Source: CAVQYV01 sp963718295 [NCBI: uncultured Methylomirabilota bacterium] (GTDB lineage Bacteria; Methylomirabilota; Methylomirabilia; CAVQYV01). From it: a stretch of 64,000 bases of DNA. The notes under the pieces were generated by a model that ran no database searches, had not been told where the DNA came from, and was given only the letters and a program-made list of their open reading frames with translations. This document shows positions 2,469 through 63,804 of the stretch, in pieces (the stretch's first letter is position 1; each line of letters opens with the position of its first letter). The stretch covers positions 1-64,000 of the forward strand of contig CAVQYV010000004.1 in NCBI GenBank assembly GCA_963718295.1, read 5' to 3'. The translations under genes were made by a program, and so were the position numbers.

Positions 2469-2892
2469 CTGGCGGAGCGGGGCGTTGATGATACGGTGCA
2501 GGGGTTTCTGCCCTCAAGGGGGTTCGGTCTGAAGCCGAGTACAACCCGGCCGGGGAGCTGGCAGCGGGCTTGGGCGCTGGCGGCGGCGTGGCGGGAACAG
2601 TTGGGCGAGGGGGAAGCTGGAGCTGGACGCGGGGGCGTGGGCGAGTGGGTCGGGTGGTGAGTGAAGGCGGGGCGTGGGCTGGGATTTATCGCCACTCTGC
2701 ATTTCTGGACAAGATCAAGGATGCGCTCGACGCCGAGTCACGCCTGGCGAGACTGGCAGTGACGCTTTCCTGCAATGAGACGATGGAATCTGTTGATTTT
2801 GCATGGCGAAGGGAAGGCGCTTCCCAGAGCGTCTGTGGCGGGTTAGAAGAAACGAAGCTGATCGTGTATAATCTTGCATAGGAGATGACGCG
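2469..2892. other. 424-base stretch without a convincing gene
   Basis: Very GC-rich (2560-2670 is almost a G/C run with GGCG repeats) with no ORF of recognisable family. A TATAAT box at 2868-2873 lies about 20 bases before the histidine-kinase start at 2893, with GGAG at 2881-2884, so the right end probably holds that gene's promoter and ribosome binding site. I see no good -35 box. Confidence 0.4.
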
Positions 2893-3646
2893 ATGCCCTA
2901 CCAGAATCCTGATCCTGGATACATCCCACGCCTTCACCAAATCCTGGAGACGCTGGAGGCCGAGATTGCCGAACGGGAGGAAGCGACCACGGCGTTGGCA
3001 GCGTCAGAACATCGAAATGTATGGCGAGCTGCGACGGCGGCTGGCCGAGAGTGAAAGCTTCAATCGCGTTCTGGTGAGCTTGCTCCAGAAGACGGTCCTG
3101 GAACAGGTGCTGGACATCGTCTGCACCGAAGCCCAGGGCTTGATCGGGGCCACCGGCAGCGCGGTCTTGCTGCTCACCGACCGGGCCTGGCTGGAGGTCA
3201 AGCACCGCTTGGGCAAGCCATTGGCGGCCGTCGAACCCGTGCCCGTGGACGGCTCGTTAGCAGGCCAGGTCGTGCGCCAGGGTGCGCCAGTGCTGCTGAA
3301 TGACCCAGCCCTCTTCGAACGGGCCCAAGTCTACCAGTGGCCTTCGGATCTCACTGCGCTGCTCGCCGTGCCTCTGCACGTCAACGGCGAGGTCATCGGC
3401 GTGCTGGATGTCGTGAACAAGGCGGGCGGCTTCACGGCGGAAGATGTCCCCATCCTGTCCCTCTTCGCCAACCAGGCCGCCATGGCCATCGAGCATGCCC
3501 GGCTGCAACGACAGGCCGAGCAACTGGCCGTGCTGGCGGAACGGCAGCGCCTGGCCCGCGAGCTGCACGATTCGGTCACTCAATCACTCTACAGCGTGAC
3601 CCTGTACGCCAACGCCTCAGTCCTGTCCTTCTCTTGTTTTCTCTGA
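2893..3646 (+). pseudogene. GAF-domain sensor histidine kinase (NarL-type), frameshifted and 3' truncated
   Basis: The likely start is ATG 2893 (8 bases after GGAG), giving MPYQNPDPGYIPRLHQIL and a coiled coil (ETLEAEIAEREEATTAL). Around 3005-3020 the frame shifts by one, after which coding resumes with MYGELRRRLAESESFN. A GAF domain fills roughly the next 150 residues (AQGLIGATGSAVLL to QAAMAIEHARL). It is followed by a HisKA_3 H-box, RLARELHDSVTQSLYSV, with the phospho-accepting His. The family should continue with a dimerisation helix and an ATPase domain. Here the sequence diverges at about 3617 into unrelated text and stops at 3646. The kinase therefore lacks its catalytic domain and cannot work. 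Confidence 0.7.
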
Positions 3647-51806: not shown

Positions 51807-52099
51807 CTTCTTCCTGTTTACGAAGATCCTTTGCAGCGCTGCTGCAGGTAGCTTCCGCGTTGAGTCGTTTGATAGCATGAATTCAAAGGATCTGTCAAGC
51901 GAAGGAGGCGAAATCGAATACTTGACAGAGGTCACGGACGGGGATGGAAGGGAATTGGATCACCGCCGTGGGACGCAGGTTTGGATCGGCCGCCCAGAAG
52001 TTCTTCGCCGTCCGCACCCAGGGGTTGCAGTTGCGTCATGATCCTAGCACAAGGGTAGAATCCCTACGAGAATGCCCTCTCCTCCTCCAGCGTGGCGGC

Positions 52100-52610
52100 C
52101 CTGATGGGGGGGTGAAGATGCCCCACCGTGGTTCAATCGATATTTCTTCCCCGGCAGTGATGAATGGCATCGTCTACATGGGATCCCAGGACGGAAGGCC
52201 CCATGACTTGGATCCGGTTACCGGGGATTTCAAAGGGAGCTATGCTGCGGGCGCCAATATCTACGCACCACCCGCCGTGGCCCATCCCACGGTCTGTATG
52301 GGATCTGACGACAAGAAACTTTACGCTTTGGATGCCAGCCTTGGCGCCCTCAAATGGATCCACAACGCAGGTACGAGCATTTCTTCTTCCCCTGCGTTGG
52401 TCAAGGGCGCCCTCTATGCAGGGTCGTGAGGCGCCCAACTTCATACCGTCGATGCTCTCTCCGGCGCCGGCTTATGGAGTTTCAACACGCCCAATGAAAT
52501 CAGACCCTCTCCGACTGTGGTCAATGGGGTGGTGCATGTCAGCTCCAGCGATGGATTACATGCCTTCGGCCTTGACCCAGAGGGAATGTTTGGGAGCATC
52601 ATCCCCTGTC
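52100..52610 (+). pseudogene. PQQ-like beta-propeller protein, remnant with in-frame stop
   Basis: Blades of a PQQ/quinoprotein-type propeller: SIDISSPAVMNGIVYMGSQDG, AAGANIYAPPAVAHPTVCMGSDDKKLYALDASLGALKW, SISSSPALVKGALYAGS, then TGA near 52428. The same frame continues as GAQLHTVDALSGAGLWSFNT and SPTVVNGVVHVSSSDGLHAFGLD. The stop thus interrupts an otherwise continuous propeller. No start or signal peptide is seen upstream, and the family match ends near 52600. It is a fragment of a larger secreted protein. Confidence 0.6.
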
Positions 52611-52734
52611 CTGACCCGGCCCGCCTGGTCCCCGGGGTGGGGCCTGAAGCCACGGATCTGGTGGACACTTGTCAGGTGGGCGGGGCGACTGCGAGCAGAC
52701 GCAACCTCCCCCACCCGCAATCTCGAGTTCTCCA

Positions 52735-52767
52735 CCCCAGGCAGGGTCGCACCCCCCCTGCCTGGGG
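52735..52767. repeat. Perfect 12-base inverted repeat
   Basis: ccccaggcaggg (52735-52746) and ccctgcctgggg (52756-52767) with a 9-base loop form a strong hairpin at the end of the PQQ remnant, opposite the amt-glnK terminator. It has no T-run, so its role as a terminator is unsure. Confidence 0.5.
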
Positions 52768-52792
52768 GTAATTCTCTCATCTCATGGGAGAT

Positions 52793-54733: not shown

Positions 54734-55471
54734 TCAGGAGGACTCTTTGGTAGTTCTCCTGCGCCACCTGCGAAGATCTCGCTTCCAGTCAGGGAGCTTG
54801 TCCTGCCTTCGACGGGGGGGGGGGAGAAAGGGCTGAAGGCCGAGATCCGACAAAGGGAAAGGTGAGGCAGGGATCTGCTGTTTCTCTTCCTTTGTCGGCC
54901 TGTGAATCTTCACTTTGGAGAGGGGAGGGCCCGAGAGATGCCGGGGAAGAAGGGAATCCACCAGAAAAATGAGCTCATTGGCGCGGTAAAAGGGGATGCC
55001 ATCCTGATGGGCCTTGAGGGCGTGGATCTCCAGCAAGACCGGCTCGGGATCCCGTCGCCTCCCGATGCGCAGGGCCAGTTCTTTGGTGGCGGCCAGGTGG
55101 ACATACTGTCGGCCCATGGGTCTGAGTCCTTGTTCCAGGATCACGGGGTAGGTCCTTCTGCGGGTCGCATGATAGAGGATCCTGGGTGGCTCGACTCTCT
55201 CATATTGGATCGAGACGGGAAGGGAGTCGCCGTATGCGGCGCGGATGCGGCTGCCATCGATCTCGAGGCGCGCCCGATCCGAGGTCAGGAGGATCTCCCG
55301 CAGATGATCCTGCCGCACAAACGACCATCCCTCCTCCTCATGGAGGGCCTGGATCAATTCTTTGATGGAGACATACCCCGCTGAATCTAACACCAACCCG
55401 TATTCATCGGGGCGATGCCTCAAGACGTATAACAGGAACTTGCTGAGACGCTCCCGGGCATGTTTGTCCAT
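54734..55471 (-). CDS. kptA: RNA 2'-phosphotransferase, KptA/Tpt1 family
   Basis: 245 residues. N-terminal domain with LSKFLLYVLRHRPDEYGLVLD (catalytic Arg-His) and WSFVRQDHLREIL. ADP-ribosyl-transferase-like domain with ILYHATRRRTYPVILEQGLRPMGRQYVHLAATKELALRIGRRR and FYRANELIFLVDSLLPRHL. Tpt1 removes a 2'-phosphate from spliced tRNA using NAD in eukaryotes; bacterial members keep the activity in vitro but their role is unclear. A basic C-terminal extension of about 65 residues (PPPRRRQDKLPDWKRDLRRWRRR) is longer than usual. It is divergent from the HAD gene. GC-poor 54540-54660 upstream of amt holds no gene. Confidence 0.88.
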   Translation of the reverse strand: MDKHARERLSKFLLYVLRHRPDEYGLVLDSAGYVSIKELIQALHEEEGWSFVRQDHLREILLTSDRARLEIDGSRIRAAYGDSLPVSIQYERVEPPRILYHATRRRTYPVILEQGLRPMGRQYVHLAATKELALRIGRRRDPEPVLLEIHALKAHQDGIPFYRANELIFLVDSLLPRHLSGPPLSKVKIHRPTKEEKQQIPASPFPLSDLGLQPFLPPPRRRQDKLPDWKRDLRRWRRRTTKESS

Positions 55472-60121: not shown

Positions 60122-63112
60122 TTAGGGTTTTTGAGGGTGGGATGGCCCGCGATGGATGCCGTGCCTTTCCAGTATTCGATAAAGGGTCCGGCGGTCGATG
60201 TCCAGGATCTCTGCGGCCCGCGAGGCGTTCTGCCCCACCGCGGCGAGCACTTCGAGGACATATTCCTTCTCCTTCTCGGCCAGGCTCAGGAAGTGGTAGG
60301 AAGCGGCGGCCGGAAGGTTGGGGCTCTTCTGGCCCTGTCGGATCTCATCTGGGAGGTCCTCCGAGGTGAGGATTCCGCTGGAATTCAAGGCGATGGCTCG
60401 CTCGATGGCGTTTTCCAGCTCACGTACATTGCCCGGCCAGTCATAGCGGCTCAGCACCGGGTAGACAGATTCGTGGATGGCGATGGTCTTCGAAGAGGAG
60501 GCGGCATAGTGACGGACAAAGTAATCCATCAGAAGAGGGATGTCTCCCCGCCGCTCGCGGAGCGGGGGAAGGGTGATGGTGACGACCTTGAGGCGGTAGA
60601 ACAGATCCTCGCGAAAGGCACGGGCCCGGACCAGCTCCGCAAGGGGTTGGTTGGTGGCGGCGATGATGCGAACATCCACATGAATGGGCTCGGTCGAACC
60701 CACCCGAAGCACCTCGCGTTCCTCCAGCGCCCGGAGGAGCTTCATCTGAAGGGCAGGCGTGGTGTTGGAGATCTCGTCCAGAAAGCAAGTTCCGCCCTGG
60801 GCGGCCTCGAAGATGCCCATCTTGTTCCCGGCAGCACCCGTAAAAGCACCTTTGACATAGCCGAAAAGCTCACTCTCGAGCAGAGTCTCCGACAAAGCGC
60901 CGCAGTTGATCGCCTTGAAAGGGGCAGCATTGCGAGGACTGATCTTGTGAACCAGGCGCGCCACCATCTCCTTGCCCGTTCCACTCTCCCCTTCGATCAG
61001 CACCGTGGTCGGTAACAGTCCCACCCGGGCGATGAGCTTATAGACCTCCACCATCTCCGGACTACGGCCGATGACTTCGGTCTCGGCATGGCTCTTCTCC
61101 ACCGCCGATCGCAGCTTCCGGTTCTCCCGTTTGAGGGCAACCTGTTCCAAAGCCCTTCTCACTACCAGCCGCACGTGATCGAGCTTGAAGGGCTTACTCA
61201 GATAGTCGTAGGCACCCTTTTGGATAGCGTCGATCGCAGTCTCCATAGATGCGAATGCCGTCATGACGATGACGGGGATCTCTTTTCCCCCGGAGCGGAC
61301 CGCCCCTAAAACCTTCATCCCATCCACCTCGCGCATGCGGAGATCTGTCAGCACGATGTCCAGGTTCTCGGAGGAGATAACCTGAAGGGCCTGTGCGCCG
61401 CCCATCGCCCGCCGAACGATATATCCTTCCCTCTCCAGCACCTCTGATAGGGATTCGAGGGCAGAACGATCGTCATCGACCACTAAGATCCTGGGACGGC
61501 TTTCTTGGATCATTCTGATCCCAGCGCCTCCTTGGCCAGCATTGCTAATGAATTCTGACCCTTTATCCGGCATCTCCGAGATGAGGATCGTGAAGGTGGT
61601 CCCCGTTCCATGCTGGCTGACGACTGAGATACGTCCGCCGTGACGAGTCACGATCTCATCACAGACGGCCAATCCCAGGCCGCTCCCCTTCCCGAATTCC
61701 TTGGTGGTGAAGAAAGGACCAAAGATATGCTGGATCTGATCCGGGGGAATCCCAACTCCCGTGTCGCTCACCTCGACTTGGAGGTGAGGTTGTGGAAGGC
61801 TCTCGTTCGAGGGACGGCGTCGGATTTCCACAGACAACGTGCCGGATTCCCGAATCGCATCCATCGAGTTATTGAAAAGGTTTAGGAAAAGCTGTTGGAG
61901 TTGGTCCGGATCCCCTTCCGTCCAAAAAGGCCCGCCATCCGCGTGCAGGCGGAAGCGGACTTGTCGGGCCTCCATGGTAGGTCCGAGCAGGTGGGCCACC
62001 GTCGAAACGGTGGTCTCCATGTCTACTGGGATGCGTCGGGGCGTCTTGCGCGCACTGGCGAGCAGGTTTTCCACGATTCCAGACACCCGATCGATTTGCT
62101 CGTTGGCGAGGCGGAGGCGACGGCTGACACGCGGATCCAGATGCGGCTCCTCCGATAACATCTGCAGGTGGGTCGAGACTGCGCTCAAAGGCGATCCGAT
62201 CTCGTGGGCGAGGGTCGCCGCCAGCTGACCCACCAGGGCGAGTCGTTCAGCTTGGCCCAGAAGCCTCTGAGTCTTATACAACTGCAGGTTCAATGTGTAA
62301 AGTTCCTGGTTTTGGTTGGCCAATTCTGCGGTGGCTTCCTCGATTTGGTGTTGCAGGTTCTCTTTAGATCTCTGGATTTCTTCCAGCATGGCATTGAAAT
62401 TCCGGGCAAGCTCGCTGAATTCCCCAGCCAGGTTTTCCTCCGCCCGGGCCGCTGCATCGCCCCTCTTGAATTGGCTCATCACATCCACCAGATGGAGCAC
62501 ACTGCGGTATACCGTGGTCCGGAACAGCAAGGTAATCGCGCCCACAAGCAAGGCCATCGTCGCCAGAAGAGAATAGAAGCGGATTCGTGAATGGGCCGCG
62601 AGGATGTCATCTACTGCTTGCAGAGAGCTGACAATCGTTAGAAAACCTGGTCGGCCGTCGCGGAACCGAAGGGGGTGTGCGGAGAAAAGCTGACGGGGGG
62701 GATCTGCATCGGCAATGAAAGTGGCGGGCTCGCTCTGGCGAAAAGCAGCGATCTCCTGTCCTTCGAGTTCCCGATCACCGGAGGTGGAGCTGGATTCCAC
62801 AAGCTTGAGTTCACCACCGAAGTCGGCGTACACATCCACCCGGGTCACATTGGGCTCGAGATCGTGGACCTCGCGCACGTGTCTCTGGAAGCGAGGGGGA
62901 ATGTTATCTACGGAAGAGCGCTGCAATTCTATGGCCAGGCGCCGCGCGGCGCTGCTGGTTTGGGCTCCAATGGCTCTCTCTACCGCCTTCACTGAACTCA
63001 GCCCGCTAAGCCAGTTGGTGGCGGTAAGGACCGAGGCCGAAATGATGATGGTCAGGGTCAGGATCCAAGCCTGCAATGACCATTTAGAACTGCTTTTTTC
63101 TGCTTTCTCCAC
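60122..63112 (-). CDS. Membrane histidine kinase fused to an NtrC-type sigma-54 response regulator
   Basis: 996 residues in one frame. Kinase part: membrane helices about 15-36 and 180-197 enclosing a roughly 140-residue periplasmic domain; HAMP; coiled coil; HisKA with His303 (TLAHEIGSPLSAV); HATPase with DTGVGIPP and GSGLGLAVCDEIV, ending near 515. Regulator part: REC (ILVVDDDRSALESL, Asp in DIVLTDLRMREVDG), AAA+ domain with Walker A GESGTGKEMVARL, the sigma-54 contact loop GAFTGA, Walker B GTCFLDEI, and a Fis-type HTH (NASRAAEILDIDRRTLYRIL). It is normally a pair such as AtoS-AtoC. The linker contains an ATG at 61513 with AAGGAGG 13 bases upstream, so the regulator might also be made alone. 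No target operon is adjacent except the small gene upstream. Confidence 0.92.
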   Translation of the reverse strand: MEKAEKSSSKWSLQAWILTLTIIISASVLTATNWLSGLSSVKAVERAIGAQTSSAARRLAIELQRSSVDNIPPRFQRHVREVHDLEPNVTRVDVYADFGGELKLVESSSTSGDRELEGQEIAAFRQSEPATFIADADPPRQLFSAHPLRFRDGRPGFLTIVSSLQAVDDILAAHSRIRFYSLLATMALLVGAITLLFRTTVYRSVLHLVDVMSQFKRGDAAARAEENLAGEFSELARNFNAMLEEIQRSKENLQHQIEEATAELANQNQELYTLNLQLYKTQRLLGQAERLALVGQLAATLAHEIGSPLSAVSTHLQMLSEEPHLDPRVSRRLRLANEQIDRVSGIVENLLASARKTPRRIPVDMETTVSTVAHLLGPTMEARQVRFRLHADGGPFWTEGDPDQLQQLFLNLFNNSMDAIRESGTLSVEIRRRPSNESLPQPHLQVEVSDTGVGIPPDQIQHIFGPFFTTKEFGKGSGLGLAVCDEIVTRHGGRISVVSQHGTGTTFTILISEMPDKGSEFISNAGQGGAGIRMIQESRPRILVVDDDRSALESLSEVLEREGYIVRRAMGGAQALQVISSENLDIVLTDLRMREVDGMKVLGAVRSGGKEIPVIVMTAFASMETAIDAIQKGAYDYLSKPFKLDHVRLVVRRALEQVALKRENRKLRSAVEKSHAETEVIGRSPEMVEVYKLIARVGLLPTTVLIEGESGTGKEMVARLVHKISPRNAAPFKAINCGALSETLLESELFGYVKGAFTGAAGNKMGIFEAAQGGTCFLDEISNTTPALQMKLLRALEEREVLRVGSTEPIHVDVRIIAATNQPLAELVRARAFREDLFYRLKVVTITLPPLRERRGDIPLLMDYFVRHYAASSSKTIAIHESVYPVLSRYDWPGNVRELENAIERAIALNSSGILTSEDLPDEIRQGQKSPNLPAAASYHFLSLAEKEKEYVLEVLAAVGQNASRAAEILDIDRRTLYRILERHGIHRGPSHPQKP

Positions 63113-63216: not shown

Positions 63217-63543
63217 TTATTGTTTGGGGGGCGCCTGGGTCGGGATAATCGTGATCTCGTTAGCCATGTTCTTCCCGTCTTTCTGATGGTATTTCAAGGT
63301 CACATCAGCACCGGCGATTAAGGCCGAAGCCTTGACCTTATGGCCGAACTCCATGATTTTCGTGGTCTTGTGCCAGTTGAAGGTCATTAGGGTGGTGCCC
63401 ACGGTGACAGTGAAGGATTTCGCCTTCGCATCTACAGAGTCGATCTTGCCTTTGGCAATCCTGTCCTGGGCCAGGACTGGGGCAGAAAGGGTGAGGGCAA
63501 ATGCCAAGGCCAGGATGAGGGAGGCGGGCAGTAGCTTTTTCAT
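63217..63543 (-). CDS. Small exported protein (DUF5666-like barrel)
   Basis: 108 residues from ATG 63543, the Met before a clear signal peptide (KKLLPASLILALAFALTLSAPVLAQ); the frame runs further upstream without coding character. The mature part is about 83 residues of beta-strands (IAKGKIDSVDAKAKSFTVTVG, MTFNWHKTTKIMEFGHKVKA, GADVTLKYHQKDGKNMANEITII). This is the pattern of small OB-like metal- or ligand-tuning domains (DUF5666/DUF1344 type). Start is well marked by signal peptide and GAGG. Function unknown. It lies upstream of the kinase-regulator and might be in its regulon. Confidence 0.7.
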   Translation of the reverse strand: MKKLLPASLILALAFALTLSAPVLAQDRIAKGKIDSVDAKAKSFTVTVGTTLMTFNWHKTTKIMEFGHKVKASALIAGADVTLKYHQKDGKNMANEITIIPTQAPPKQ

Positions 63544-63804
63544 GACCTCTTTTCCTTCTTGTCCCATGCGGTTCGAAATAGAGTGTATGGACTGCAACCG
63601 GCATGCCAATCGAACTGGGTCTTTCCCAGCCCGTGAAGTGCCCGAAAGAAGGGGCCTCGGTGGGTAACTTGCCCAGACAGGTTCCGATCGCCAGGTGAGG
63701 CAGATTTGCTCTTTTCTGCAAATGTGCCACAACGAGGAAGGCTCTTCGAAGCGAGGAAAGAAAGTAGGACGGAGTGGAAGAGCAGGCTGAGATGCATTGG
63801 GGGG

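What the first reader, a model, noticed from the sequence alone, without database searches (positions are those of the whole stretch)
60122..63112. A whole two-component system in one polypeptide, with a vestigial start in the linker
The frame runs without a break from a membrane sensor kinase through HATPase into REC, sigma-54 AAA+ (with GAFTGA) and a Fis HTH. Hybrid kinases with a REC domain are common; kinase joined to a complete NtrC-type activator is not. The output domain would be tethered to the membrane unless internal initiation makes it free. The linker (about residues 515-540) still contains an ATG at 61513 with AAGGAGG 13 bases upstream, consistent with fusion of two adjacent genes by loss of the stop.
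Basis: partly seen in the sequence, partly recalled or inferred. Interest (0 to 1): 0.65.

Follow-up and report, generated by a model that had tools for sequence, protein, structure and literature searches.

The report
Sensor kinase and regulator sharing frame
One long gene that seems to join a membrane sensor to its gene-switching partner is most likely an ordinary pair of overlapping genes made to look like one by a single extra base, so it is probably not a new kind of signalling protein.

Summary
The continuous ORF is really there, on the minus strand: 60122-63112, 996 aa, all domains present. The fusion reading is probably wrong. Read one base later, the linker ends in a TGA overlapping the regulator's ATG as ATGA, a common junction of coupled kinase/regulator genes. 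One extra base within about codons 512-533 would fuse the two. The contig has at least nine other frame breaks, six in the same +1 direction; three are confirmed by one family profile continuing across two frames. Distant relatives are two genes: 0 of 58 adjacent pairs inspected are fused, and 11 of 58 have the 4-nt xTGA overlap (8 ATGA, 3 GTGA). In two genome surveys, all 87 listed alignments spanning both halves contain a stop. Against an artefact: the other nine breaks all lie before 33.5 kb, and ten of ten conserved genes tested at 35.6-58.4 kb show no break; no close relative and no reads could be examined. A recent real frameshift or a true fusion remains possible. New lead: a sigma-54-like site and a palindrome precede the adjacent small gene, a possible target.

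The parts
61514..63112 (-). histidine kinase part (residues 1-533); HAMP 62372-62506, HisKA 62045-62230, HATPase_c 61580-61915
   Evidence: Pfam; coordinates
61514..61579 (-). linker, residues 512-533: where a net +1 frame change would turn a two-gene junction into this ORF
   Evidence: three-frame reading; modest codon-usage support
61527..61533 (-). AAGGAGG, Shine-Dalgarno-like, 13 nt before the regulator's ATG
61510..61513 (-). ATGA: regulator start codon overlapping a TGA stop of the +1 frame
   Evidence: same junction type in 8 of 58 related pairs (plus 3 GTGA)
60122..61513 (-). NtrC/AtoC-type regulator: REC 61166-61489, Sigma54_activat 60575-61075, AAA lid 60317-60559, HTH_8 60170-60283
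   Evidence: Pfam; NCBIfam; coordinates
63593..63608 (-). sigma-54 promoter-like site (-24/-12), one mismatch; lead only
   Evidence: 3 such sites in the window against 1.64 expected, 19 of 100 shuffles reach 3
63696..63731 (.). palindrome, 14-nt arms, 86% complementary, centred about 113 bp upstream of the promoter-like site; possible activator-binding site, lead only
   Evidence: 13 such clusters in the window
63220..63543 (-). small protein, signal-peptide-like N terminus by eye, no Pfam match; possible target gene

Best explanation
In the organism this is most likely an ordinary two-gene two-component system: a transmembrane histidine kinase and an NtrC/AtoC-type sigma-54 activator, translationally coupled through a 4-nt ATGA overlap at 61510-61513. 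The window shows one ORF because of a net extra base somewhere in about codons 512-533, most likely a sequencing or assembly error. Shown: the domains, the ATGA junction in the +1 frame, other frame breaks in the contig, unfused distant relatives. Inferred: that this break is an error; that the kinase phosphorylates the regulator, which then oligomerises and drives sigma-54 polymerase as in the NtrC family; that a target may be the adjacent small gene.
For: ATGA junction with a Shine-Dalgarno-like motif in the +1 frame, unusual for internal ATGs (2 of 192 have all of it). At least nine other frame breaks in the contig, six net +1 (six of the nine judged by eye), three confirmed by profile continuity. 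0 of 58 adjacent kinase/regulator pairs fused; 11 of 58 with xTGA overlap. All 73 spanning rows (of 118 rows transcribed, recount) and all 14 spanning rows (counted by eye) contain at least one stop. Codon usage in codons 516-533 favours the +1 frame (22 of 2659 control windows do as well; window chosen after the fact).
Against: The nine other breaks all lie before 33.5 kb; ten of ten conserved genes chosen at 35.6-58.4 kb show no break. With a free break point the codon test is weak: 230 of 7340 positions, 2 of 51 at in-frame ATGA. The AAA/GGG runs in the linker are short. Spacing of 13 nt is long for a Shine-Dalgarno motif. No reads and no close relative were available; the surveys scored only the 2 or 4 best candidates per genome.
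Confidence: 0.7

Rival explanations
1. Real but recent frameshift in this strain. The DNA is as written, so the kinase carries the whole regulator as a C-terminal extension, while the intact ATG and Shine-Dalgarno-like motif still give free regulator by internal initiation: the cell makes a membrane-bound fusion and a soluble regulator.
For: Same junction evidence as the best explanation; the part of the contig around the gene shows no other certain frame break; both halves keep all their Pfam domains.
Against: The contig demonstrably holds frame breaks in other conserved genes, so an error needs no new event.
Confidence: 0.16
2. True, established fusion: a membrane kinase with its NtrC-type activator in one functional chain, the output domain working while tethered.
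For: Uninterrupted ORF; about 30 residues between HATPase_c and REC is not implausible for a hybrid kinase (recalled); one-chain systems with a DNA-binding output exist in Bacteroides (PMC11253607, passages).
Against: The linker still reads as a coupled junction in the +1 frame, which an old fusion would be expected to lose; 0 of 58 related pairs fused; 0 of 87 spanning alignments free of stops; whether such a pair is one or two proteins is reported to depend on transmembrane and DNA-binding domains (PMC3018481, passages).
Confidence: 0.12

Closest known systems
AtoS/AtoC- and NtrB/NtrC-type two-component pairs
   Same: Second half scores best against AtoC (466 bits) and NtrC (406 bits), first half matches AtoS (196 bits); same order of genes as most related loci.
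   Different: All three scores lie below the curated equivalog cut-offs (714, 559, 646), so it is not AtoC, NtrC or AtoS itself; as given it is one ORF.
Hybrid two-component systems of Bacteroides (HTCS)
   Same: As given: membrane kinase and DNA-binding regulator in one chain (PMC11253607, passages).
   Different: Output here is a sigma-54 AAA+ domain with a Fis-type HTH; HTCS regulators are AraC-type (recalled).
Ordinary hybrid histidine kinases
   Same: Kinase followed in frame by REC, as in L003.
   Different: They end in REC (or HPt, recalled) and have no AAA+ or DNA-binding output.

Membership tests
Two-component pair of kinase and NtrC-type regulator | HisKA and HATPase_c in the kinase | tested here: met
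   43 and 97.7 bits, above cut-offs
Two-component pair of kinase and NtrC-type regulator | REC, Sigma54_activat and Fis-type HTH in the regulator, with GAFTGA | tested here: met
   98.3, 221.1 and 31.2 bits, above cut-offs; GAFTGA in the sequence
Two-component pair of kinase and NtrC-type regulator | Two separate genes | tested here: inconclusive
   one ORF as given, but an ATGA junction in the +1 frame and frame breaks elsewhere in the contig
Two-component pair of kinase and NtrC-type regulator | Phosphotransfer and sigma-54-dependent activation | not testable with these tools
   needs bench work
Hybrid two-component system (HTCS) | Kinase and DNA-binding regulator in one chain | tested here: inconclusive
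   same as above
Hybrid two-component system (HTCS) | AraC-type output domain (recalled) | tested here: not met
   output is Sigma54_activat plus HTH_8; no AraC-type HTH among the Pfam matches

The most novel reading that the evidence does not exclude
A genuine one-chain two-component system in which a transmembrane kinase carries a complete sigma-54 enhancer-binding activator, with a live internal start that also yields free regulator, so that one gene makes a tethered and a soluble form in a ratio set by translation.
Probability: 0.2. Interest if true: 0.5.

Novelty: new member of a known kind. Interest (0 to 1): 0.15.

Why it matters
If the fusion were real it would go against the reported dependence of kinase/regulator fusion on transmembrane and DNA-binding domains (PMC3018481, passages) and raise the question of how a membrane-bound AAA+ activator assembles at an enhancer. 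As it stands, the case is mainly a caution: a fused ORF in a contig with frame breaks, with an ATGA junction one frame away, should be checked against reads before it is called a fusion. The sigma-54-like site and palindrome beside it give a testable target for the pair.

Tried and rejected
Tried without result: the window's own genome (none held). Rfam (gathering thresholds) and tRNA scans of the window were empty. PHROGs gave nine families covering kinase or activator parts, eight of unknown function. The codon-usage frame test gave only modest support once the break point was left free, so I do not lean on the stronger number from the fixed window. The promoter and terminator scan around the gene found about as many sites as shuffles, and the sigma-54 pattern with two mismatches 25 sites against 25.4 expected.

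Considered and rejected: fusion by a lost stop in the kinase's own frame (possible, but it leaves the ATGA of the +1 frame unexplained). L029 and L030 had long open frames without stops in the surveys, but their kinases are separate from the regulator. L012 looked spanning, but its two genes are separated by stops and a gap. L003 is one frame, but with a plain REC and no AAA+ match. A tenth frame break near 10.4 kb was seen in the frame scan and left out of the count of nine. Not run: structure prediction, which would not tell an error from a fusion.

Literature: six searches. None of the listed titles and abstract openings described a kinase fused to a complete NtrC-type activator. I opened five papers and saw only passages found by word search. 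Absence from print is not claimed.

Full report
WHAT IS THERE. The ORF of the finding is real in the given sequence but lies on the minus strand: GTG at 63112 to the stop ending at 60122, 996 aa. Pfam finds HAMP, HisKA, HATPase_c, REC, Sigma54_activat, an AAA lid and HTH_8 in that order, and two hydropathy peaks fit membrane helices. NCBIfam places the second half nearest AtoC (466 bits) and NtrC (406 bits), and the first half matches AtoS (196 bits), all under the equivalog cut-offs. ATG 61513 is codon 534, with AAGGAGG 13 nt upstream.

THE JUNCTION. In the +1 frame the DNA is open from codon 489 and stops at TGA 61512-61510, which overlaps the regulator's ATG as ATGA. In 22 trusted genes of the window, 53 of 192 internal ATGs are ATGA; 7 of the 53 have AGGAG or GGAGG within 25 nt, 21 have a +1 frame open for more than 18 codons, and 2 have both. 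One extra base between the end of HATPase_c and codon 533 would therefore turn a typical coupled gene pair into this ORF. Codon usage over codons 516-533 favours the +1 frame by 3.4 nats, reached by 22 of 2659 windows in trusted genes (the window was chosen after looking). With a free break point, 230 of 7340 positions do as well, and 2 of 51 at in-frame ATGA. This is modest support only.

THE CONTIG. Several neighbouring genes are broken by frame changes. Three are well supported because one family model continues from one frame into another: NPN_iso_grp_22 (profile 2-227, then 226-390), the dehydrogenase model tdh (11-171, then 169-327) and ilvD (324-456, then 456-541). Pfam agrees for the dehydrogenase, and finds the N- and C-terminal dihydroxy-acid dehydratase domains in different frames. 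With six more read by eye (epimerase 2.2 kb; cyclase/ATPase 8.9, 9.45 and 9.66 kb; an anti-sigma-like gene 17.0 kb; a PMT_2 glycosyltransferase 21.7 kb) there are nine, six net +1 and three net -1. The change needed in the linker is net +1. I take these as sequencing errors; decaying genes are not excluded. Against an error in the linker, all nine lie before 33.5 kb, and ten of ten conserved genes that I chose from 35.6-58.4 kb show no break, their main Pfam domains covered about 85-100%. A PQQ-propeller-like gene at 51.9-52.8 kb is damaged, by an in-frame stop.

THE RELATIVES. No close relative could be reached: the single genome scan gave six loci at 23-35% identity. In 398 genomes of the phylum of G003, 94 had a match at 1e-100 or better; in 199 of the phylum of G001, 61 had one at 1e-90 or better. 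Of the 118 rows, 73 begin before query residue 500 and run past 900, so they span both halves, and none of the 73 is free of stops (recount, from rows that I transcribed). In one search, 14 rows begin before residue 500, counted by eye, and each contains a stop. Only the two or four best candidates per genome were scored, so weaker fusions could be missed, and spanning rows can only arise where the two genes share a frame. I then inspected 63 loci, of which 5 show no adjacent kinase upstream. Of the other 58, 0 are fused, 11 have the 4-nt xTGA overlap (8 ATGA, 3 GTGA), 20 another overlap, 24 a gap and 3 an unclear start. Regulators there are 38-47% identical to the window's. The loci are not a random sample: 40 were picked by me from regulator-only hits, the surveys' own picks favour pairs in one phase, and L056/L057 look like near copies. 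In annotated Roseomonas mucosa the two genes overlap by 26 nt.

LITERATURE. A survey of two-component gene organisation reports that 22.6% of same-strand intervals are overlaps, and that whether the pair is one protein or two depends on a transmembrane sensor or a DNA-binding output (PMC3018481, passages). One-chain systems with a DNA-binding output exist in Bacteroides (PMC11253607, passages).

HOW IT MOST LIKELY WORKS. As in NtrB/NtrC-type pairs (established for the family; inferred here), the kinase senses through its region outside the membrane and phosphorylates the regulator, which oligomerises and drives sigma-54 polymerase. A candidate target lies next door: a -24/-12-like site at 63608-63593, about 50 nt before the ATG at 63543 of a small protein with a signal-peptide-like start and no Pfam match, with a palindrome at 63696-63731 centred about 113 bp further upstream. 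Taken alone neither is remarkable: 3 such promoter-like sites in the window against 1.64 expected, reached by 19 of 100 shuffles, and 13 palindrome clusters in 64 kb. Their arrangement was noticed after the fact and is a lead only.

VERDICT. An ordinary kinase/NtrC-type pair, shown as one ORF by a one-base frame change that is most likely an error (0.7). A real recent frameshift (0.16) or an established fusion (0.12) is not excluded. Even if the DNA is right, the regulator's start looks live rather than vestigial.

Noticed in passing
window 2160-33440, several genes: At least nine frame breaks in otherwise conserved genes (epimerase, cyclase/ATPase, anti-sigma-like, glycosyltransferase, nickel-pincer isomerase, dehydrogenase, dihydroxy-acid dehydratase); none certain after 33.5 kb..
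   Followed up: partly
window 63593-63731 and 63220-63543, minus strand: Sigma-54-like promoter and upstream palindrome before a small gene with a signal-peptide-like start, next to the kinase gene..
   Followed up: partly
window 51926-52768, plus strand: PQQ/BamB-like beta-propeller fragments in one frame split by an in-frame stop, without a clear start: a damaged gene between ruvX and the ammonium transporter region..
   Followed up: partly
window 54734-55471, minus strand: Tpt1/KptA RNA 2'-phosphotransferase family gene near the ammonium transporter gene..
   Followed up: no
window 2882-3643, plus strand: GAF-domain histidine kinase cut off just after the start of HisKA_3: truncated or frame-broken gene..
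   Followed up: no
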